A stretch of 64,000 bases of DNA from Paraburkholderia sabiae (GTDB taxonomy: Bacteria > Pseudomonadota > Gammaproteobacteria > Burkholderiales > Burkholderiaceae). Under the pieces are notes generated by a model. It was given only the letters and a program-made list of their open reading frames with translations. It was not told the origin of the DNA and made no database searches. This document shows, in pieces, positions 3,554 to 50,103 of this stretch. The position numbers and the translations under genes were made by a program. Position 1 is the first letter of the stretch. Each line of letters starts with the position of its first letter. The stretch is from assembly GCF_030412785.1 (NCBI RefSeq), contig NZ_CP125295.1:5518001-5582000 (forward strand), given 5' to 3'.

Positions 3554-5308
3554 TCAATCGAGCCGCAGACGGCTTTCGGCGTAGGCGTACAGCGGACGCC
3601 ACAACACGCGATTGAAGAGGGACACGAACAGGGACATCACCGCGATGCCCAGAATGATCTTCGGATAGTCGCCCGCGGCCGTGTACTCGGCGATATACGC
3701 GCCGAGTCCGTGCGCGGCGAGCTTCGTGTTGCCCCACTGCACGGCCTCCGCGACGATGCTCGCGTTCCACGCGCCGCCCGAAGCCGTGATTGCGCCCGTC
3801 ACGTAGTACGGGAACACGCCCGGCAGCATCGCCTGACGCCACCATTGCCAGCCGCGGATACGGAAATTCTTCGCGGCTTCCTTGTAGTCGTTCGGATAGG
3901 CGCTCGCGCCCGCAATCACGTTGAACAGGATATACCACTGCGTCCCGAGCACGATCAGCGGCGAGAGCCAGACGTCCGGGTTCAGATCGAACTTGACGAT
4001 CACGATCACGAAGACCGGGAACAGCAGGTTCGCCGGGAACGCGGCGAGGAACTGCGCGACGGGCTGAACCTTCTCGGCCAGCGACGGCCGCAAGCCGATC
4101 AGCACGCCGACAGGCAGCCACACCACCGATGCCAGCGCGATCAGCAGCGTCACGCGCAGCAGCGTGAAGAGACCCAGCACGAACACGTGACCGACTTCAT
4201 CGAGCGTGACGCCCGTGCGCACATAGGCGATCACGCGATACACGACGAACGCCGTCACCAGCACGACGATCACAGCCCACACGATGTCGCCCGTCTTCGA
4301 CGGCTTGTGGTCGACGGGCTTCGCGAACTTCACCGCGCTCATGCTCGGCCAGCGGATGGGCACGCGCGCAGCCTTCGCGAACATCCAGCCGATGGGCACG
4401 AGCAGACGGTGAATCAGGCGCGTGCGGCGGATCAGGTCGAGCAGCCACGACTCGGGCGCGTCGCCGGAACTCGTGTTCTCCATGCGGAACTTGTCCGTCC
4501 ACGCGACGAGCGGACGGAACAGGAACTGGTCGTACGCGAGGATCACGACGGTCATCGTCAGGATCACCCAGCCGATCGCGTGCAGGTTCTTGTCGGCGAT
4601 CGCCTGAGCCAGATACGCGCCGACGCCCGGCAGCGTGATCGTGTGATTGCCGACCGTGATTGCTTCCGACGCCACCACGAAGAACCAGCCGCCCGACATC
4701 GACATCATCATGTTCCAGATGAGGCCGGGCATCGAGAACGGCACTTCGAGCTTCCAGAAACGCTGCCACGATGTGAGGTGGAAACCCTTCGACACTTCGT
4801 CCAGATCGCGCGGCACCGTGCGCAGCGACTGGTAGAAGCTGAAGGTCATGTTCCACGCCTGGCTCGTGAAGATCGCGAAGATCGCGGCCAGTTCGGCGCC
4901 CAGCACGCGCGACGGAAACAGCGCGAGGAAGAACGTCACCGTGAACGAGATGTAGCCGAGCACGGGCACGGACTGCAGGATGTCGAGAATCGGCACGAGC
5001 ACCTGCCCCGCGCGACGGCTCTTCGCGGCGAGCGTGCCGTAGACCAGCGTGAACACCAGCGACGCCACCATCGCGGCCAGCATGCGCAGCGTGGTACGTA
5101 GCGCGTACTCGGGCAGGTTCGCGGGGTCGAGCGAAATGGGCGCGCTCTGCAACGTCGAGATGGGCGCCATCGTCTCGTGGAAGCCGACGACGGCCATCGC
5201 GATCAGGCAGATGATCAGCGGGAACGCGATGAAGTCCCAACGGTTGGGCAGCACCCGCCACGCCGACGCATTGGCGGTCCGGTTCAGGGTGAAGCTGAAG
5301 AAATCCAT
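3554..5308 (-). CDS. ABC transporter permease with two fused membrane domains
   Basis: This 584-residue inner-membrane protein contains two binding-protein-dependent permease domains in tandem, about residues 75-280 and 370-580, so one chain may form the whole channel. Each half has several hydrophobic segments and an EAA-like loop (AAKNFRIRGWQWWR in the second half; SKGFHLTSWQRFWKLEVP in the first). I chose the ATG at 5308 because GGGAGGG lies just upstream; a longer start at 5350 has no such site. It forms an operon with the downstream ATPase gene. Family members import nitrate, sulfonates, taurine or related compounds. Nothing here fixes the substrate. Confidence 0.88.
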   Translation of the reverse strand: MDFFSFTLNRTANASAWRVLPNRWDFIAFPLIICLIAMAVVGFHETMAPISTLQSAPISLDPANLPEYALRTTLRMLAAMVASLVFTLVYGTLAAKSRRAGQVLVPILDILQSVPVLGYISFTVTFFLALFPSRVLGAELAAIFAIFTSQAWNMTFSFYQSLRTVPRDLDEVSKGFHLTSWQRFWKLEVPFSMPGLIWNMMMSMSGGWFFVVASEAITVGNHTITLPGVGAYLAQAIADKNLHAIGWVILTMTVVILAYDQFLFRPLVAWTDKFRMENTSSGDAPESWLLDLIRRTRLIHRLLVPIGWMFAKAARVPIRWPSMSAVKFAKPVDHKPSKTGDIVWAVIVVLVTAFVVYRVIAYVRTGVTLDEVGHVFVLGLFTLLRVTLLIALASVVWLPVGVLIGLRPSLAEKVQPVAQFLAAFPANLLFPVFVIVIVKFDLNPDVWLSPLIVLGTQWYILFNVIAGASAYPNDYKEAAKNFRIRGWQWWRQAMLPGVFPYYVTGAITASGGAWNASIVAEAVQWGNTKLAAHGLGAYIAEYTAAGDYPKIILGIAVMSLFVSLFNRVLWRPLYAYAESRLRLD

Positions 5309-27717: not shown

Positions 27718-27755
27718 CGGCGGTTTCTGGATTCTGGTTCTGGCTTCTGGCTTCT

Positions 27756-28276
27756 GCGCTGGCATCCGCGTTTTCGTATCGGTCTATTAGCGTCGCCCCT
27801 GTGCGGGGCGGCAGTTACTTTCTTTGCCGCCGCAAAGAAAGTAACCAAAGAAAGCGGCTTCTAACCTCCAGTGCCTGCCAGGATAACGCTGCGACCCACG
27901 TTCCTTGAGCCGTCGCACAGCGACGCAATACTCCGTAGAAAGCCCGCAGTCAGGCGCGCGCGGTGCGAAAGATGACACCCGCTTGGGGCACATCCGGTCG
28001 GCTTGTTTTTTTGCGTTTGCCGTCGATTTGCGGCGGCATGTGTTCCAAACTGTGTGGGATTTTCGCGCCGTGCGCGGTTGACTGCGGGCTTTATACGGAG
28101 TGGGGAGGTCGCTGCGCGACAGCTCAACTGCGGCATGCCGCGGCGGTGTCCTGGCGGGCACCGGAGGTTTGAAGCGGCTTTCTTTGGTTACTTTCTTTGC
28201 CGCGGCAAAGAAAGTAACTGCCGCCCCGCACAGGGGCGACGCTAATAGACCGATACGAAACCGCGGATGCCAGCGC
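27756..28276. repeat. Long imperfect palindromic element, copy 1 (about 521 bp)
   Basis: Two arms of about 200 bp (27756-27970 and 28060-28276) are inverted copies of each other, starting GCGCTGGCATCCGCG and ending CGCGGATGCCAGCGC. Inside each arm sits a 32-bp palindrome reading GTTACTTTCTTTGCC and its complement (27814-27845, imperfect at the centre; 28187-28218, perfect), next to a GCCCC-tgtgc-GGGGC hairpin and a GTCGC-gca-GCGAC type hairpin. A spacer of about 90 bp is asymmetric. The element fills the space between convergent MFS and hemY genes (27718-28340). Copy 2 is at 36111-36632, with its spacer inverted relative to this one. Frames through it look spurious. Confidence 0.92.
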
Positions 28277-28340
28277 ACCCAAAGAACGAAAAACAAAAAG
28301 CAAAAACCAGAATGGCGACTAGCGTCGCAGACAAAAAAAC

Positions 28341-29531
28341 TTAAACGATATTCATCGCCAGCGCACTCTCCCGATAATGCGCGCCAGCCTTATCAGCATC
28401 CCCGAGTTGCTCATGCAACCGGGCAAGTGCCCGATGAGACCGAATCTTCAACGTCTCGTTATCAGCGAGCTTAAGAGCCTGCTCAAGGAAAGACTGCGCC
28501 TTCCCCCACAACTGCTGATGCAGACACAAACGCCCCAGCGCGAACATCAGATCGGCGTCTTCGGGACGTTCCTTCCTCCAAGCTTCCGCCTTCTGAATGA
28601 GCGGCAACGCATCGCCGCCCGTGGTATCGGGATACCGCCGCAACAACCTCGCATCCCAGTTCTGCGCGAGCGCTTCCTCGACGATCTTGCGCGCCTCATG
28701 CGGACGGTTCAGCGCGACGAGCAACTCGGCCGCGAGATCCGCGAGACGCGGCGAATGCCGCTCGGTCGGCGTCAGTGAATGCCACAGTTCGAGCAGCGCA
28801 TCAGCATTGTGACGACGGTCGCGCAGCAGGTTCTCAGCCGCCAGTTGTCGCAGGCGCACAGCCACCGCGGGATGAATCGCCTCGCGCTTCTCCAGCGTCT
28901 TCACGAGCTTCAGCACTTCGCCCCAGTTCTTCAACTGCTGCTGCGCCCGCAACGCAATCTGCTGCGCGTGAATGCGTCGGCCGCCCTGCGATTGCATCTC
29001 CGTCAGCGCGAGCAGCGCACCGTCGGCATCGCGGCCATCGGCGCGCATGTCGGCCGTCGCCATCAGACGCGCGTCCTGCCAGTCGGACGAATCGATCTGC
29101 GCGAGATACTCGTCGCGGCGCGCGTACTCGTGCATCCGGTGCGCGGCGTTCGCGGCGATCAGCCCCGCCGCGCCCTTGTTGTCGGGATTGATCAGCGAAT
29201 CGCGCGCAGCCTTCTCGGCGCGCGAGAAACGGCCTGCATACAGATTGCCGATTGCATCGCGCAACGCCGCATGCGCCTTCGCGACACGCTGACGCGCGCG
29301 ATACGCGGCGACCCGCTGCGGCATACGCCAGATGTTGCGCACGATACGCAGCACCATATACATCACGATGAACGCAACGATGATGCCGACGATGAACAGG
29401 TTCAGCGAAATGTCGACGCGGTACGGCGGATAGACGAGCAGCACCTGTCCGGTATCGAAGCGTCCAACGATCGCGAGTACGACGGCAATCGCGAACAGGA
29501 ATGCGAGCCAGAGGAGTCCACGCAGCGCCAT
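28341..29531 (-). CDS. hemY: HemY-like membrane TPR protein
   Basis: This 396-residue protein has two N-terminal membrane helices (about 5-22 and 42-62) with the HemY_N pattern, then helical TPR-like repeats. In enterobacteria hemY ends the hemCDXY operon; its exact role in tetrapyrrole synthesis or membrane assembly is unclear, and it is not the protoporphyrinogen oxidase of the same name in Gram-positives. It starts two bases after the hemDX stop. Its last 200 bases use less biased codons, and the palindromic element's flank abuts the stop codon. Confidence 0.88.
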   Translation of the reverse strand: MALRGLLWLAFLFAIAVVLAIVGRFDTGQVLLVYPPYRVDISLNLFIVGIIVAFIVMYMVLRIVRNIWRMPQRVAAYRARQRVAKAHAALRDAIGNLYAGRFSRAEKAARDSLINPDNKGAAGLIAANAAHRMHEYARRDEYLAQIDSSDWQDARLMATADMRADGRDADGALLALTEMQSQGGRRIHAQQIALRAQQQLKNWGEVLKLVKTLEKREAIHPAVAVRLRQLAAENLLRDRRHNADALLELWHSLTPTERHSPRLADLAAELLVALNRPHEARKIVEEALAQNWDARLLRRYPDTTGGDALPLIQKAEAWRKERPEDADLMFALGRLCLHQQLWGKAQSFLEQALKLADNETLKIRSHRALARLHEQLGDADKAGAHYRESALAMNIV

Positions 29532-32942: not shown

Positions 32943-35900
32943 GTGACGTCTTCCGGATCGGCGCGCCCTGCCCGCCGCACTACTGCCTCGCCCGATGCCG
33001 CCCCCGCATCGGCCGCTTCCGCTGCCAAGGCTTCCAAGGCCGCCAAGGCCCTGAAAGCAACGCAAGCCCTCGACTCCGGCAAAACCGGCAAATCCACGAA
33101 GACCAAGGCTGTGACGGCCAAGGCGCCCGTCAACGGCACATCGAAACGCATCAAGGCGGACGGCAAGCAGGCAGCCGCGCGCAAGCCCAAAGCGGGCAAG
33201 AACGGCGGGGCGCCCGCCCTGAAGGACAACGCCCGCACGCGTGAAGACAAGGACCAGCCGCTCTTCGAAGACATCCGCTATCTGGGGCGGCTGCTCGGCG
33301 ACGTGGTGCGCGAGCAGGAAGGCGACGAAGTGTTCGACGTCGTCGAAACGATTCGTCAGACGGCTGTGCGTTTTCGTCGCGAGGACGACAGCGTCGCCGC
33401 GCAGGCGCTCGACAAGAAGCTGCGCGCGCTTTCGCCCGAACAGACGGTGAGCGTCGTGCGTGCGTTCAGCTACTTCTCGCATCTGGCGAACATCGCGGAA
33501 GATCGCCATCGCAACCGTCGCCACCGCATTCACGATCTGGCCGGCTCGACGTCGCAACCGGGCACGATCGCGCATGCGCTCGACCGGCTCGTCGAAGCGA
33601 ATGCCGCCGCCACGCCCGTGCTGCAGCAGTTCTTCAACGACGCGCTGATCGTCCCCGTGCTGACGGCGCACCCGACGGAAGTGCAGCGCAAGAGCATTCT
33701 CGACGCGCAGCACGACATCGCGCGTCTGCTTGCCGAACGCGACCAGCCGCTGACGGCGCGCGAGCATCTGCAGAACGACTCGCTGCTGCGCGCGCGCGTG
33801 ACGTCGCTGTGGCAGACGCGCATGCTGCGCGATTCGCGTCTGACGGTCGCCGATGAAATCGAGAACGCGCTGTCGTACTACCGCGCAACGTTCCTCGAAG
33901 AAATTCCGCAGCTTTACGCCGATATCGAAGAAGCGCTCGTCGAGCACGGTCTCGATGCGCGTCTGCCGCCCTTCTTCCAGATGGGCAGCTGGATCGGCGG
34001 CGACCGCGACGGCAATCCGAACGTGACGGGCGAAACGCTCGAAAACGCGATCACGCGCCAGGCGGCAGTGATTTTCGAACACTACCTGGAGCAGGTGCAC
34101 AAGCTCGGCGCGGAACTGTCGGTGTCGAACCTGCTGGCGGGCGCGAGCGACGAGCTGAAGGCGCTTGCCCAAGCATCGCCCGATCACTCGCCGCACCGCA
34201 CCGACGAGCCCTATCGCCGCGCGCTGATCCACATGTACACGCGCCTCGCCGCGAGCGCACGCGTGCGTCTCGGCGAAGGCGTCGTGCCCGTGCGCAGCGC
34301 TGGCCCCGGCATCCCGCCGATCCGTGCCGTGCCCTACGACGATTCGTCCGAGTTCGTGCGCGATCTGCACGTGCTGATCGATTCGCTCGCCGAGCATCAT
34401 GGCGCGTCGCTCGCGACGCCGCGTCTGTCGCCGTTGACGCGCGCCGCCGAAGTGTTCGGCTTCCATCTGGCGAGCATCGATCTGCGTCAAAGCTCCGACA
34501 TTCACGAAGCAGTGATCGCCGAGCTGCTGCGCTGCGCGGGCGTCGAAAGCGACTACGCGGCGCTCACGGAAGCGGAAAAGCTGCGCGTGCTGCTGGCGGA
34601 ACTCGCGCAGCCGCGTCTGCTGCGCTCGCCGTATGTCGAGTACTCGAACCTCGTGAAGAGCGAACTCGGCGTGCTCGAACAGGCGCGCGTGACGCGCGAG
34701 AAGTTCGGCGCGCGCGCGGTGCGCAACTACATCATTTCGCACACGGAGACGGTCAGCGATCTCGTCGAAGTGATGCTGCTGCAAAAGGAAACGGGCCTGC
34801 TGCAAGGCACGCTCGGCCATCCCGTCGAAGCGGCGCGCGCGGGCGTGATGGTGATTCCCCTCTTCGAGACGATTCCCGACTTGCGCAACGCGCCGCACAT
34901 CATGCGCGATCTGCTCGCGCTGCCGGGCATCGATGCCATCATCGAGAACCAGGGCAACGAGCAGGAAGTGATGCTCGGCTATTCGGACAGCAACAAGGAC
35001 GGCGGCTTCCTGACGTCGAACTGGGAGCTGTATCGCGCGGAACTGGCGCTGGTGTCGCTCTTCAACGAGCGCGGCATCACGATGCGTCTGTTCCATGGAC
35101 GCGGCGGCACCGTCGGACGCGGCGGCGGCCCGACGTATCAGGCGATCCTGTCGCAGCCGCCGGGCACCGTCGACGGTCAGATCCGTTTGACGGAACAGGG
35201 CGAAGTGATTGCGAGCAAGTTCGGCAATCCGGAAATCGGCCGACGCAATCTGGAGACGGTCGTCGCCGCGACGCTCGAAGCTTCGCTGCTGCCGCACGGC
35301 AATTCGCCCGCGCAGTTGCCCGAGTTCGAGGACGTGATGCAGACGCTGTCGGATGCGGCGATGGCGTCGTATCGTGCGTTGGTCTACGAAACGCCCGGCT
35401 TCACCGACTACTTCTTCTCGTCGACGCCGATTGCGGAGATCGCCGAGCTGAACATCGGCAGCCGTCCGGCTTCGCGCAAGCTGCAGGATCCGAAGCAACG
35501 CAAGATCGAAGACTTGCGCGCGATTCCTTGGGGTTTCTCATGGGGGCAATGCCGGTTGCTGCTGACGGGCTGGTATGGGTTCGGCAGCGCCGTGGCCGGC
35601 TGGCTCGATGCGGCGGATACGAATGTCGAGCGTGAGCGTCGTCTGAATCAGCTGCGCAAGATGCACAAGGTGTGGCCGTTCTTTTCGAATCTGCTCTCCA
35701 ACATGGACATGGTGCTGGCGAAGACCGATCTCGCGGTGGCGTCGCGTTATGCCGCGCTCGTCACTGACAAGAAGCTGCGCAAGCATGTGTTTGAGCGGAT
35801 CGTGGCTGAGTGGGAACGCACTTCCAATGTGCTTTCCGAAATCACTGGCCGCAAGGAGCGGCTTTCCGATAATCCGTTGCTCGCGCGGTCGATCAAGAAT

Positions 35901-36044
35901 CGGTTTCCGTATCTCGATCCTTTGAATCACCTGCAGGTTGAACTCTTGAAGCGGCATCGCGGTGGGGATACGAATGTGCGCGTGCGGCGCGGGATTCATC
36001 TCACTATTAATGGGATTGCTGCTGGGTTGAGGAATACTGGTTGA
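32943..36044 (+). CDS. ppc: Phosphoenolpyruvate carboxylase with basic N-terminal tail
   Basis: The enzyme (1033 aa) carboxylates phosphoenolpyruvate to oxaloacetate to refill the citric acid cycle. Catalytic motifs are [46 protein letters not shown] and [16 protein letters not shown]. It starts at GTG 32943 with GAGGAAA upstream. The first 100 residues are rich in Ala, Lys and Pro, like a histone-H1-type tail, before family homology begins near [14 protein letters not shown]; bacterial enzymes are usually about 880-950 residues. The last 200-300 bases have loosened codon use next to the palindromic element. Confidence 0.95.
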
Positions 36045-36110
36045 TTTTTTTGCCCTGCGGGCGGCTTGTGCTTTTTTTGGCGCTTGTCGCCCGTTTTGTT
36101 TTTTTTCTTC

Positions 36111-36632
36111 GCTGGCATCCGCGGTTTCATATCGGTCTATTAGCGTTGCCCCTGTGCGGGGCGGCAGTTACTTTCTTTGCCGCGGCAAAGAAAGTAACCA
36201 AAGAAAGCCGCTTTTGAACCTCCGGTGCCCGCCAGGTTCGCGCTGCGGCATGCCGTAGTTGAGCCGTCGCGCAGCGACATCCGCACTCCGTAGAAAGCCC
36301 ACAGTCAATCGCGCGCGGCGCGATAGCCCCGCGCATAGTCTGGAGCACATACAGCCGCAATCAAACCGACGGCACAAAAAACACTCCGGCCGAATTTGCC
36401 CTAACTGGGCGTAACCCTTCACGCTGCGCATACCGGACTGCGGGCTTTCTACGGAGTGTTTGCGTCGCTGCGCGACGGCTCAACTGCGGCATACCGTAGT
36501 GCGAACCTGGCAGGCACCGGAGGTTTAAAAGCGGCTTTCTTTGGTTACTTTCTTTGCCGCGGCAAAGAAAGTAACTGCCGCCCCGCACAAGGGCAACGCT
36601 AATAGACCAATACGAAAACGCGGATGCCACCG
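36111..36632. repeat. Long imperfect palindromic element, copy 2 (about 522 bp)
   Basis: Same family as 27756-28276. The arms start GCTGGCATCCGCGG (36111) and end in the matching complement at about 36632; each carries the perfect 32-bp palindrome (36167-36198 and 36544-36575). The spacer (about 36320-36430) aligns with the reverse complement of the copy 1 spacer, with shared runs such as CCGACGGCA and AAAAAAC. The element lies between convergent ppc and methyltransferase genes. The sequence TTTTTTTGCCCTGCGG begins right after the ppc stop, and TTTTTTTGTCTGCGG, on the minus strand, right after the methyltransferase stop. Confidence 0.92.
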
Positions 36633-36676
36633 CAGCAAAAAACAAAGAATGGCGACTGGTGCCGCAGACAAAAAAA

Positions 36677-37429
36677 TCACCAGGCCTCGATCATCAGAGC
36701 ATCGAGCTTAAAAGACCCATCATCTTTAACATCAAAGTAATCGCGGACTTCATCCGGCGCAGACCCCCACAAAGCCCGAATAGCAAGAACCCGCGCCTCA
36801 GGCGTCCTCATCCTGGCGACCCACGACCCAAACTCAATATCAAGCCGCCACCGTTGGCGAACATCAACTTCAAAACCGGCGGCAGCAAAAAACGAAACCC
36901 ACTCATCCGCGCGATAGTCACGAATATGCGAGCCATCGCGCAACACCTCGACGGCCTGCAAATGCGTATCGAGCAACGGATGCTCGCTCCCGGCAATATC
37001 GATGAACAGCACGCGCCCGCCCGGCTTCAACACTCGCCGCACCTCGGCAAGCGCCAACGGCACGTCGTGCCAGTGATGCGCACTCATCCGGCTGACGACC
37101 CAGTCGAACGATGCATCCGCGAACGGCAACTTCTCGGCCGCGCCCTGCTGCGTGCGGATATTACTGAACCCGCGCTCGGCGGCGGCAGAAGCAACGGTAG
37201 CGAGCATCTGCGGCGCGATGTCGTACGCAACGACAGATCCAGCATGCGCCGCCACCGCAAAACTCGCATGCCCCGCGCCGCAACCCATATCGAGCACCGC
37301 CGCGCCCGGCGTCGCGGCCACGGATGCCGCCAGCGTCTGCAAGTCCGCCCCCGTCGCGTGAACCTGGCTCGTCAAATATGCGGCCGCCGTCGAGCCGAAC
37401 GCATCGGCCACCTGATCGTGATGCTTCAT
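36677..37429 (-). CDS. Class I SAM-dependent methyltransferase (UbiE/MenG-like domain)
   Basis: This 250-residue cytoplasmic enzyme has the SAM-binding motif VLDMGCGAGHASFAVA, an acidic residue after the second strand (VAYDIAPQML), EKLPFADASFDWVVSR and the post-motif LKPGGRVLFIDIAGSE, typical of the Methyltransf_11 group. The acceptor is unknown. It is divergent from an MmyB-type regulator across 153 bases containing two palindromes, so that regulator may control it. Its final 100 bases (coding strand rich in T) have atypical codon use beside the palindromic element. Confidence 0.88.
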   Translation of the reverse strand: MKHHDQVADAFGSTAAAYLTSQVHATGADLQTLAASVAATPGAAVLDMGCGAGHASFAVAAHAGSVVAYDIAPQMLATVASAAAERGFSNIRTQQGAAEKLPFADASFDWVVSRMSAHHWHDVPLALAEVRRVLKPGGRVLFIDIAGSEHPLLDTHLQAVEVLRDGSHIRDYRADEWVSFFAAAGFEVDVRQRWRLDIEFGSWVARMRTPEARVLAIRALWGSAPDEVRDYFDVKDDGSFKLDALMIEAW

Positions 37430-37520
37430 CGTGTGCTCCCGTTTGTGAGGTCGTGTCGAACTTCGGAAGCGGCCCGCCTGTTCGCACCGGCCGTTCCAGT
37501 CGCTACAATAGAGCCCGCCC

Positions 37521-37566
37521 TGTACCGGTACAAGTCAACCAATTATTCTGGTATCGAGATTACCAG
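37521..37566. promoter_or_regulatory. Two palindromes in the methyltransferase/regulator divergent promoter region
   Basis: TGTACCGGTACA (37521-37532) is a perfect 12-bp palindrome. CTGGTA (37548-37553) and TACCAG (37561-37566) form a second inverted repeat just before the regulator ATG; both share a GGTA half-site. They are good candidate operators for the adjacent XRE/MmyB regulator. Confidence 0.6.
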
Positions 37567-37582
37567 CCATCGCAGTCGCCCC

Positions 37583-38395
37583 ATGACCACGCCGTCTCCT
37601 GCCGATTCCGTCCCGCCGCTCGATGCGTCGCCCGCCCGCGCGCTCGGCGAATTCATCCGCGCGCATCGCGAGCGTCTGTCGCCGCAAGCCGTCGGGCTGC
37701 CGCCCGGTCCGCGCCGCCGCACGCCCGGTCTGCGTCGCGAGGAAGTCGCGCAGTTGTGCGGCGTGAGTCCGACCTGGTACACGTGGATCGAACAGGGTCG
37801 GCCCGTGTCCGCTTCCGCCGATGCCCTCGCGCGTATCGCCGTCGCGCTGCAGTTGTCGCGCGCGGAACGCGCGTATCTGTTCGAACTGGCCGCGCAGCGC
37901 GATCCCGCCGAGCCGGACCCCGCCGCCGCCGATGCCCCCACGATGCTGCTCAAGACCGTCCAGCTCGTGAACGCGCCTGCGTACGTGCTCGACCGTCAGT
38001 TCACCGCGCTCGCGTGGAACGCGCCGGCGTCGGATCTGTTCGTCGGCTGGCTGGACGACGATCACGACCGCAACCTGCTGCGCTACACGTTTCTGTCGCC
38101 GGCAGCCCGCACGCTGATCGTCGACTGGGAAATCCGCGCGCGGCGCCTCGCCGCCGAATATCGCGCGGATTCGATCCGTCACCAGAACGACGCGCCCACG
38201 CGCTCGCTGATCGATTCGCTCGCCGCCGCCAGCGACGCCTTCTCGCGCTTCTGGGCGTCGCAGGACGTCAACGAGCGCGAAGGCGGCCAGCGCCAGTTCA
38301 ATCATCCGCGCGACGGCCTCGTCGTCTACAACCAGATCACCTTCAAGCCCGCGCACCGCGAAGACCTGAAGCTCGTCGTGCTGCTGGCCGAATGA
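37583..38395 (+). CDS. XRE-family transcriptional regulator with MmyB ligand-binding domain
   Basis: The protein (270 aa) has an N-terminal helix-turn-helix (about 20-85) with the diagnostic sequence RRTPGLRREEVAQLCGVSPTW followed by YTWIEQGR, and a C-terminal MmyB/PAS-like domain (about 110-265; YVLDRQFTALAWNAPASDLF). Members of this group regulate a neighbouring dehydrogenase or methyltransferase gene, often in response to a small or fatty-acid-like ligand. The divergent methyltransferase is the obvious candidate target, with paired palindromes between the genes. ATG 37583 is directly before the domain. Confidence 0.9.
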   Translation: MTTPSPADSVPPLDASPARALGEFIRAHRERLSPQAVGLPPGPRRRTPGLRREEVAQLCGVSPTWYTWIEQGRPVSASADALARIAVALQLSRAERAYLFELAAQRDPAEPDPAAADAPTMLLKTVQLVNAPAYVLDRQFTALAWNAPASDLFVGWLDDDHDRNLLRYTFLSPAARTLIVDWEIRARRLAAEYRADSIRHQNDAPTRSLIDSLAAASDAFSRFWASQDVNEREGGQRQFNHPRDGLVVYNQITFKPAHREDLKLVVLLAE

Positions 38396-49740: not shown

Positions 49741-49941
49741 GTTTTTCGGGGAAGGACGCAGCTTCGCGGTCTGCTCGCGAGGTTGCGTCTGACAGATGCG
49801 GTGCCTTGCAAACTGCCGCGTGGCGAACATCACAAGCCAATCGAAAAAATTTTCGAACTCTCGTGAAAATCCGCGGTCTGTCTCTACGGTACGTGTGCGG
49901 CGATGCCGCCGCGTCACCATTCTCCTCTTGTCGTTGTTGCT

Positions 49942-49968
49942 CCGGGGCCCATAGCCCCGGTTTTTTTT
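49942..49968 (+). terminator. Strong intrinsic terminator
   Basis: CCGGGGC (49942-49948) pairs with GCCCCGG (49954-49960) and is followed by eight T residues. It lies 200 bases beyond the OmpA-like stop codon. Confidence 0.9.
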
Positions 49969-50103
49969 GCCTGCTGTTCTGGCGTGTTTCCAGGGCTCGC
50001 AGCGCATCTTTCCCAAGCAGCGAATCCCCTTCCGCTTCTACCGTACGACAACTGTGAACGCAACGTGACACGCGTCGCGCCGTCACACGCATCGCATACG
50101 CGC

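What the first reader, a model, noticed from the sequence alone, without database searches (positions are those of the whole stretch)
27718..28340. Long palindromic element with nested palindromes fills a convergent intergenic space (copy 1)
A 521-bp imperfect palindrome has arms of about 200 bp, and each arm carries a 32-bp palindrome plus smaller hairpins (GCCCC/GGGGC, GTCGC/GCGAC). Copy 2 (36111-36632) has the same architecture and size. The roughly 90-bp spacer is asymmetric and conserved between copies but inverted, so the element has a direction and behaves like one dispersed unit, not a chance hairpin. It encodes no plausible protein and has no IS ends. Both copies lie between converging genes. 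Possible roles are bidirectional transcription end, a topoisomerase or nucleoid-protein binding site like BIMEs, a barrier to read-through antisense RNA, or a non-autonomous mobile unit.
Basis: partly seen in the sequence, partly recalled or inferred. Interest (0 to 1): 0.82.

Follow-up and report, generated by a model that had tools for sequence, protein, structure and literature searches.

The report
Palindromic repeats with mutational halos
A roughly 520-base palindrome found whole or in part at 121 mapped places in this Paraburkholderia-like genome sits mostly just behind the ends of genes, and the DNA on both of its sides carries a mirror-image, one-strand excess of T over C that likely comes from repeated breakage or unwinding at the palindrome.

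Summary
Both window copies are real and belong to a family mapped here at 121 places, 99 of them full-length. Arm matches occur in other Paraburkholderia, in Caballeronia and, as ~90-bp pieces, in Burkholderia. Places: 61 convergent, 56 tandem, 4 divergent. Both arms of copy 1 match Rfam RF02421, an 'sRNA' candidate.

The main result was not in the finding. The strand running 5'->3' toward the element is enriched in T and G and depleted in C and A on both sides, about 1 kb into unique neighbouring genes (decay length near 260 nt). Both flanks exceed 0.1 keto skew at 97 of 121 elements, against 3 of 1030 element-free gaps. It is symmetric to replication direction, present on 5' sides of genes, and largely missing from orthologues without the element. 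Polarity is C to T and ongoing.

I read it as a recurrent break or hairpin site whose 3'-ended single strands mutate: a fossil kataegis. The enzyme is unknown. Against: strength is unrelated to arm identity, and some element-free hemY ends are also T-rich. A terminator role is weakly supported. Dispersal is unexplained. An IS481-family IS lands in the inner palindrome (15 of 15 copies listed).

The parts
27755..28280 (+). copy 1, core of the palindromic element (526 bp)
27755..27893 (+). copy 1 left outer arm
28139..28277 (-). copy 1 right outer arm
27814..27845 (.). 32-bp nested palindrome, left arm of copy 1
28187..28218 (.). 32-bp nested palindrome, right arm of copy 1
27792..27812 (+). inward-facing GC-rich hairpin with tail AGTTACTTTC (weak terminator-like)
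28220..28240 (-). inward-facing GC-rich hairpin with tail AGTTACTTTC (weak terminator-like)
27971..28060 (+). asymmetric spacer of copy 1 between the inner arms
28315..28339 (-). outer motif of the right side (GTCTGCGACG.. with T run on the - strand), directly behind the hemY stop codon
26755..27754 (+). left halo of copy 1 (T/G-rich, C/A-poor + strand, inside the MFS gene and up to the core); 1-kb extent taken from the family average
28281..29280 (-). right halo of copy 1 (T/G-rich - strand, inside hemY); extent taken from the family average
36111..36632 (-). copy 2, core of the palindromic element (522 bp), spacer orientation opposite to copy 1
36167..36198 (.). 32-bp nested palindrome, left arm of copy 2
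36544..36575 (.). 32-bp nested palindrome, right arm of copy 2
36145..36165 (+). inward-facing GC-rich hairpin, copy 2 left
36577..36597 (-). inward-facing GC-rich hairpin, copy 2 right
35111..36110 (+). left halo of copy 2 (inside ppc); extent taken from the family average
36633..37632 (-). right halo of copy 2 (inside the methyltransferase gene); extent taken from the family average
27721..27824 (-). Rfam RF02421 Bp1_684 match, 51.0 bits (gathering 44)
28208..28279 (+). Rfam RF02421 Bp1_684 match, 44.9 bits (gathering 44)

Best explanation
This is one of 121 mapped copies or remnants of an interrupted palindrome that is likely a recurrent DNA break site: the strand running 5'->3' toward it on both sides is enriched in T and depleted in C for about 1 kb, as would be expected if that strand were repeatedly left single-stranded as a 3' overhang and then mutated. 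Shown: the family, its position behind genes, the two-sided strand-switching gradient, its absence from most orthologous genes without the element, C-to-T polarity, and continued accumulation after two element-bearing lineages split. Inferred: that a hairpin or cruciform at the palindrome is cut or stalls replication, that the 5' strands are resected, and that cytosines (and less so adenines) of the exposed 3' strands are damaged or miscopied before repair from the sister chromosome. Its position behind stop codons would then be where such a site is best tolerated, and the T-rich flanks the unconstrained inner edge of the same gradient. How it spreads is not explained.
For: Gradient at third codon positions, inbound strand coding: T .38 and C .13-.17 at 50-200 nt, T .11 and C .40 beyond 1.5 kb; control genes T .120, C .399. 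Inbound strand template: T .24 (n 156) and .20 (n 968) at 50-200 nt.073-.079 beyond 2 kb. Odds of T over C 11.8-fold at 75 nt, 1.25-fold at 1250 nt, exponential length 263 nt, fitted to binned values. Keto skew 60-460 nt, both flanks >0: 119 of 121 elements against 243 of 1030 element-free gaps; >0.1: 97 of 121 against 3 of 1030 (0 of 669 tandem, 2 of 143 convergent, 1 of 218 divergent). Orthologues, T/(T+C) in the last 300 nt: MFS .57 and .54 with element (own, L170).04 and .08 in P. franconis and P. diazotrophica, mean .174 of 48 without; hemY .65 and .65 against mean .289; ppc .61 and .57, mean .436 over 7 loci scored with element, against .223; methyltransferase .68, mean .521 over 3, against .236 (67). 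No locus without element reaches .45 for ppc (0 of 73) or the methyltransferase (0 of 67). Polarity, last 400 nt, C>T:T>C = 11:1, 15:0, 9:0 (own) and 16:0, 15:0, 15:1 (L170); unique changes own 11:1, L170 26:2, shared 16:0. Symmetric to spacer (.199/.204) and to replication direction judged from regional GC skew (.200/.202, n 99, p .86). Start sides of tandem copies >0 in 54 of 56; all four divergent copies positive on both sides, 6 of their 8 flanking genes sent to Pfam and all 6 confirmed as genes. Elements of other genomes, mostly with other interiors: both sides >0 in 42 and >0.1 in 38 of 46 rows (one site counted twice) from 54 loci given. Precedent in yeast: inverted repeats break and raise mutation on both sides (PMC3681665, abstract).
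Against: Halo strength does not depend on arm-arm identity (rho -0.04, n 99), and arms of one copy match each other hardly better than arms of other copies (0.842 against 0.838), so perfection of the long hairpin is not what matters now. Short, IS-split and arm-only copies also have halos, some one-sided. Some gene ends without a detected element are T-rich too: MFS 2 of 48 and hemY 8 of 76 loci at T/(T+C) >= .45, up to .91; four of these hemY loci hold another repeat-like unit. P. diazotrophica has an element at ppc with only a weak halo (.40) and derived C>T:T>C of 1:1. Two Caballeronia ppc sites and three 405-bp elements show weak or one-sided halos, although three Caballeronia plasmid copies are clearly positive. 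Copies more alike to another copy have slightly stronger halos (rho +0.28, p .005), which does not fit slow accumulation with age. No SbcC or SbcD passes its family cut-off, so the nuclease is unknown. No break was observed; everything is read from sequence.
Confidence: 0.5

Rival explanations
1. Replication-gap model: hairpins form in either template strand at the fork and block synthesis without a break; a gap is left on the inbound strand (lagging-strand hairpin: gap on the origin-proximal side; leading-strand hairpin: gap on the distal side).
For: Predicts the same strands and a sub-kilobase scale (inference); no SbcC or SbcD over the family cut-off, which would leave hairpins uncut.
Against: The two sides are equal (.200 and .202, n 99), although an interrupted palindrome in E. 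[quoted passage not shown] An exponential fits better than the linear fall-off of uniformly placed Okazaki starts (residuals 0.21 against 3.05).
Confidence: 0.25
2. Transcription-linked model: polymerase slows or forms R-loops on entering the element from the gene, exposing the non-template strand, so the halo is transcription-associated mutation at a terminator.
For: Most flanks are 3' ends of genes (178 of 242); in tandem copies the stop side is stronger (.223 against .152).
Against: Start sides of tandem copies show the halo in 54 of 56, and the four divergent copies show it, on the template strand of the outward-transcribed gene. Element-free convergent ends show it at 2 of 143.
Confidence: 0.08
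3. Bidirectional transcription terminator or insulator kept for the gene ends beside it, the halo being a by-product.
For: 61 of 121 copies convergent, 4 divergent; at the hemY site P. franconis and P. diazotrophica hold what reads by eye as an ordinary two-way terminator hairpin, which this genome lacks; inward hairpins with T-containing tails on both arms.
Against: About 1% of 162 arms reach d>0, median -24.5, against 34% of 158 element-free convergent gene ends; 56 of 121 copies are tandem.
Confidence: 0.3
4. Non-autonomous mobile element (MITE-like) that spreads by an unknown recombinase and survives only where it does no harm.
For: Dispersed, 0 to 238 palindrome sites per genome among 249 genomes of the family; present and absent at orthologous sites.
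Against: No clear target duplication (25 pairs: shared 5-mers 3, shuffled mean 1.8; 6-mers 2, mean 0.4, largest 3); no arm beside the only Y1_Tnp match; no match in the phage collection.
Confidence: 0.35

Closest known systems
Rfam RF02421 Bp1_684 (Bp1_Cand684_SIPHT, B. pseudomallei sRNA candidate; PMC3521395)
   Same: The first ~45 model positions match both outer arms of copy 1, 51.0 and 44.9 bits; the candidate is listed among RT-PCR validated ones (Table 3, passages read).
   Different: Described there as one ~114-nt sRNA with a possible trans-acting role; here it is the outward-read end of a long dispersed palindrome. Copy 2 does not reach the gathering score.
REP/BIME and other dispersed bacterial palindromes (ERIC, Correia and RU recalled; REP passages PMC3733652)
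   Same: High copy number, extragenic, palindromic, near 3' ends of genes; REPs are targets of insertion sequences (PMC1525189, abstract).
   Different: About 520 bp with nested palindromes, no RAYT beside it, and a mutational halo. The GTAG/CGTC tags of REPs were not tested.
Fragile long inverted repeats in yeast (PMC3681665, abstract) and kataegis (recalled)
   Same: Mutations raised on both sides of an inverted repeat, attributed to long single-stranded regions after breakage.
   Different: A natural, dispersed bacterial family; a strand-resolved signature read from sequence; no deaminase or polymerase identified.
Engineered interrupted palindrome in E. coli cut by SbcCD (PMC4245961, abstract)
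   Same: Long palindrome interrupted by a spacer.
   Different: There the breaks need SbcCD; this genome has no SbcC or SbcD over the family cut-off, though the SbcC cut-off is strict (passed by 1 of 14 control genomes; SbcD by 8 of 14).

Membership tests
REP elements mobilised by RAYT (TnpA-REP) | a Y1 transposase gene flanked by the repeat | tested here: not met
   one Y1_Tnp match in the genome, no arm match at E<=10 in its 3.3-kb locus
MITE | target-site duplication at the ends | tested here: inconclusive
   25 copies with both outer motifs: shared 5-mers 3 (shuffled mean 1.8, largest 7), 6-mers 2 (mean 0.4, largest 3); the true ends are uncertain
MITE | terminal inverted repeats shared with an autonomous element | tested here: inconclusive
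   the only transposase seen inside copies is an IS481-family IS inserted in the inner palindrome, with ends of its own; no exhaustive search for an autonomous partner
Rfam RF02421 Bp1_684 | score over the gathering threshold | tested here: met
   51.0 and 44.9 bits, gathering 44, copy 1 only; copy 2 not listed
intrinsic (Rho-independent) terminator | GC-rich hairpin followed by a strong U tract (d>0) | tested here: not met
   about 1% of 162 arms
fragile palindrome with two-sided strand-coordinated mutation (kataegis-like) | C-to-T on the 3'-ended strand on both sides, switching strand at the site | tested here: met
fragile palindrome with two-sided strand-coordinated mutation (kataegis-like) | breaks observed at the site | not testable with these tools
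   needs break mapping

The most novel reading that the evidence does not exclude
The family is a set of about 130 built-in mutator sites: each palindrome is broken or unwound so regularly that the neighbouring gene ends are rewritten strand by strand, a natural bacterial kataegis carried by a dispersed repeat and tolerated across Paraburkholderia because the lineage lacks a canonical SbcCD.
Probability: 0.33. Interest if true: 0.92.

Novelty: new variant of a known kind. Interest (0 to 1): 0.8.

Why it matters
Long palindromes are regarded as unstable in bacteria, yet here about a hundred full-length ones persist, and most leave a readable record of which strand was exposed and how far. If the reading is right, genomes already in the databases give a break or unwinding map with strand and length scale, a mutation spectrum of single-stranded DNA in vivo over evolutionary time, and a reason why codon usage of gene ends shifts near such repeats. 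It also recasts an Rfam 'sRNA' family as the end of a repeat.

Tried and rejected
Co-evolving arms: a copy's own second arm is the best match in only 3 of 99 copies, so repair of the palindrome within a copy was rejected. Strong intrinsic terminator: rejected on scores (the tail score summed T positions only and was corrected). RAYT-driven REP: rejected. Phage origin: no match in that collection. Local replication origin: would enrich the outward strand, but the inward one is enriched (inference). Pre-existing skew at insertion sites: argued against by orthologues without the element. One-time mutagenesis at insertion: unlikely, since unique C>T continue in two lineages, but the excess of those unique changes over the rest of the same genes is modest. 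T-rich ends without a detected element (MFS L176 and L196; hemY L175, L176, L177, L178, L180, L181, L202, L203) were looked at only in L176, L177, L180 and L181, where another repeat-like unit lies behind hemY with skew on the hemY side: left open. Of seven plasmid records fetched one had annotation (AP028202: convergent genes); my gene caller missed one short annotated gene there, so some 'start' sides may be unrecognised stop sides; the 8 start-side genes sent to Pfam, 6 of them at divergent copies, all matched families.

Rows dropped: gene ends more than 150 nt from the core (16 of 178) in the terminator counts. P. franconis L172 (short form) was left out of the without-element group for ppc and methyltransferase, and L171 (short form) out of that for MFS and hemY, while L171 stayed in the ppc with-element group although its contig ends inside the element. 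The 121 places include remnants and IS-split copies, a tandem triple counts once, and they are those lying in the stretches fetched: four further places were seen (C1:4859479, 5008376, 5091492; C2:420129) and the arm counts of 132 per strand suggest around ten more. In the element-free control, flanks were measured from the gap edges, not from 60 nt outward.

Full report
Observation. Both copies are there as described. Copy 1 fills the space between two converging stop codons exactly (27718-28340); copy 2 lies between the ppc stop at 36044 and the methyltransferase stop at 36677. A single strand of either copy folds into one long hairpin far beyond shuffles. The family is large. A blast of the window's own genome (9.9 Mb, 4 contigs) scored 40 of 191 candidates, its limit, all full-length at 84-100% identity. 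An arm pattern occurs 132 times on each strand and a spacer pattern 110 times, 59 on one strand and 51 on the other. The inner palindrome occurs at 238 sites, with 0 for the reversed control pattern. In the stretches fetched a profile gave 143 hits after removal of overlaps, which merge into 121 places, 114 on contig 1 and 7 on contig 2; 99 hits are full-length, the rest remnants, IS-split copies or variants. Four have the same outer arms but another interior, 631-655 bp in all; one place holds three units in tandem.

Distribution. The exact inner-palindrome pattern is present in 40 of 249 genomes of the family, in 3 of 25 genera, with 0 to 238 sites per genome, and in 1 of 274 genomes drawn from the class, the window's own. 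A blast with copy 2 finds matches in 85 of 146 relatives, 74 of the same genus counting the window's own genome and 11 weak ones in other families of the order. In the rows listed most relatives share only the outer 80-100 bp. Named plasmid records with matches belong to Paraburkholderia (9), Burkholderia (7, pieces of about 90 bp) and Caballeronia (5); the phage collection has none. That the window is Paraburkholderia is inferred from the nearest PEP carboxylase loci.

Anatomy. From outside inward each side can have an outer motif (GTCTGCGACG.., found on 96 of 178 stop sides, median 9 nt behind the stop codon, and on 26 of 64 start sides), a T-rich tract, the start of the core (GCTGGCATCCGCG), an 8-bp GC hairpin with tail AGTTACTTTC or ACCTACTTTT, and the 32- to 34-bp palindrome in two versions that are each self-complementary. 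Rfam RF02421 matches both arms of copy 1. That family rests on Bp1_Cand684_SIPHT, which its authors list as RT-PCR validated with a possible trans-acting role (PMC3521395, passages read). I read it as the end of this repeat.

Place. Of 121 elements 61 lie between convergent genes, 56 between tandem and 4 between divergent genes. Element-free gaps of at least 100 bp in the same stretches are 47 convergent, 322 tandem and 188 divergent (Fisher p 2e-24 for convergent, 2e-14 for divergent). Genes were called by a codon-usage script of mine. Of 242 flanks 178 are stop sides, with a median distance from stop to core of 56 bp.

The halo. The strand that runs 5'->3' toward the element is rich in T and G and poor in C and A on both sides. 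At third codon positions the gradient runs from T .38 / C .13-.17 near the core to T .11 / C .40 beyond 1.5 kb where that strand is the coding strand, and from T .24 to about .075 where it is the template; A falls from .076 far away to about .04 near the core. The odds of T over C fall exponentially with a length of 263 nt. Both flanks (60-460 nt) are positive at 119 of 121 elements and above 0.1 at 97; of 1030 element-free gaps 243 are positive on both sides and 3 exceed 0.1. The halo is the same on both sides of the spacer and with respect to replication direction judged from regional GC skew. In other genomes it is positive on both sides in 42 of 46 element rows and above 0.1 in 38 (one site counted twice); of seven plasmid copies fetched all are positive on both sides, one of them (Burkholderia cenocepacia, a 95-bp piece) at only .01 on one side.

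It follows the element rather than the gene. In P. franconis and P. diazotrophica the space behind the MFS gene and hemY has no arm match and holds what reads as an ordinary two-way terminator hairpin; the MFS end has T/(T+C) of .04 and .08 there, against .57 here and .54 in Burkholderia sp. Ac-20365 (L170), which has the element. Group means are .554 (2 loci) against .174 (48) for MFS.652 (2) against .289 (76) for hemY.436 (7) against .223 (73) for ppc and .521 (3) against .236 (67) for the methyltransferase. For ppc and the methyltransferase no locus without element reaches .45; for MFS 2 of 48 and for hemY 8 of 76 do, up to .91, and at four of the latter another repeat-like unit lies behind hemY. 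So the halo is not proven to be unique to this element. Parsimony gives C>T against T>C of 11:1, 15:0 and 9:0 in the last 400 nt of ppc, MFS and hemY here and 16:0, 15:0 and 15:1 in Ac-20365; in P. diazotrophica, without the element at MFS and hemY, 3:1 and 2:5, but also only 1:1 at ppc, where it has one. After the two element-bearing lineages split, unique C>T continued (11 and 26, against 1 and 2 T>C). C>G and G>T also rise in places.

Mechanism. A gradient that is centred on the element, switches strand there and is indifferent to replication direction and mostly to transcription points to a process with two ends. The inbound strand on each side is the one that remains after a double-strand break at the element and removal of 5' strands. 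C-to-T and A-to-G on single strands is the classical signature of exposure (recalled: mitochondrial and leading-strand asymmetries, kataegis). In yeast, inverted repeats raise mutation on both sides through breaks and single strands (PMC3681665, abstract). These steps are inferred. Against a simple hairpin-quality model, halo strength is unrelated to arm identity (rho -0.04) and damaged copies keep halos; copies closer to another copy have somewhat stronger halos (rho +0.28). Transcription alone is contradicted by start sides: 54 of 56 tandem start sides positive and all four divergent copies positive on both sides; the eight start-side genes sent to Pfam, six of them at divergent copies, all match families. 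A replication-gap variant remains the main rival. Neither SbcD (best 52.8 bits, cut-off 77.65) nor SbcC (27 bits, cut-off 478.5) passes in this genome. The SbcC cut-off is strict (1 of 14 control genomes passes; SbcD 8 of 14), so absence is suggestive only; it would help explain why long palindromes persist, and it leaves the cutting enzyme open.

Terminator role. Inward-facing terminator-like hairpins exist on both arms, but their scores are intermediate: median -24.5, about 1% above zero, coding control median -39.9, element-free convergent gene ends 34% above zero. The T-rich 3' flanks (T .50, A .05) are better seen as the inner edge of the halo, since start sides have them too.

Dispersal. 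No clear target duplications, no RAYT link. At the orthologue of one site a relative (G043) has the same outer arms around a different interior, and in another (G020) the two flanks of that site lie about 60 kb apart in opposite orientation, each ending at an arm, so exchange and rearrangement at these sites happen. All fifteen full-length matches listed for an IS481-family insertion sequence sit at the centre of the inner palindrome, 13 with identical 4-bp repeats.

Literature. Ten searches of the held library (listings seen) showed no paper describing this element beyond the sRNA candidate, nor a two-sided mutational halo around bacterial palindromes; most subscription journals and preprints are not held.

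Noticed in passing
L251-L265 (own genome, e.g. C1:965623-966993): An IS481-family insertion sequence (379-aa transposase, PF13011) is inserted at the centre of the inner palindrome of this element in 15 of 15 full-length matches listed, 13 with identical 4-bp flanking repeats.
   Followed up: yes
L176, L177, L180, L181, about 3800-4950: Another repeat-like unit behind hemY (structured-looking intergenic sequence plus a small ORF beginning MPRSVKNQPASRPPVDALQYEKL) with a strong T-over-C skew on the hemY side.
   Followed up: partly
L196 (MFS end), L175, L178, L202, L203 (hemY end): Gene ends with T/(T+C) of .49-.60 although no arm of this element is detected there; cause unknown.
   Followed up: no
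G020:C3:1357300-1359000 and 1416800-1418300 (L294, L295): The two flanks of one element site of the window's genome lie about 60 kb apart and inverted in this relative, each ending at an element arm: a rearrangement with breakpoints at the element.
   Followed up: partly
own genome C1:2414061-2416726: Three element units in tandem, 425-428 bp apart, the last one carrying the IS.
   Followed up: no
own genome C1:2956977, 2973115, 3387430, 5426546: Elements with the usual outer arms but a different interior, 631-655 bp in all, like the form common in relatives.
   Followed up: partly
own genome C1:2156140-2156669: The one full-length copy without a halo on either side (-0.04, 0.00); possibly a recent arrival.
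   Followed up: no
own genome C1:2447116 (L313:658-1770): SbcD-like 370-aa ORF below the family cut-off; no SbcC over cut-off in the genome.
   Followed up: partly
window 49889-49969 (+): Rfam RF02866 ncS16, a Burkholderia sRNA family, 105.2 bits.
   Followed up: no
L171:4852-5191 and L172:12940-13065: Short forms of the element with most of the interior missing, at sites where related species have the long form.
   Followed up: partly
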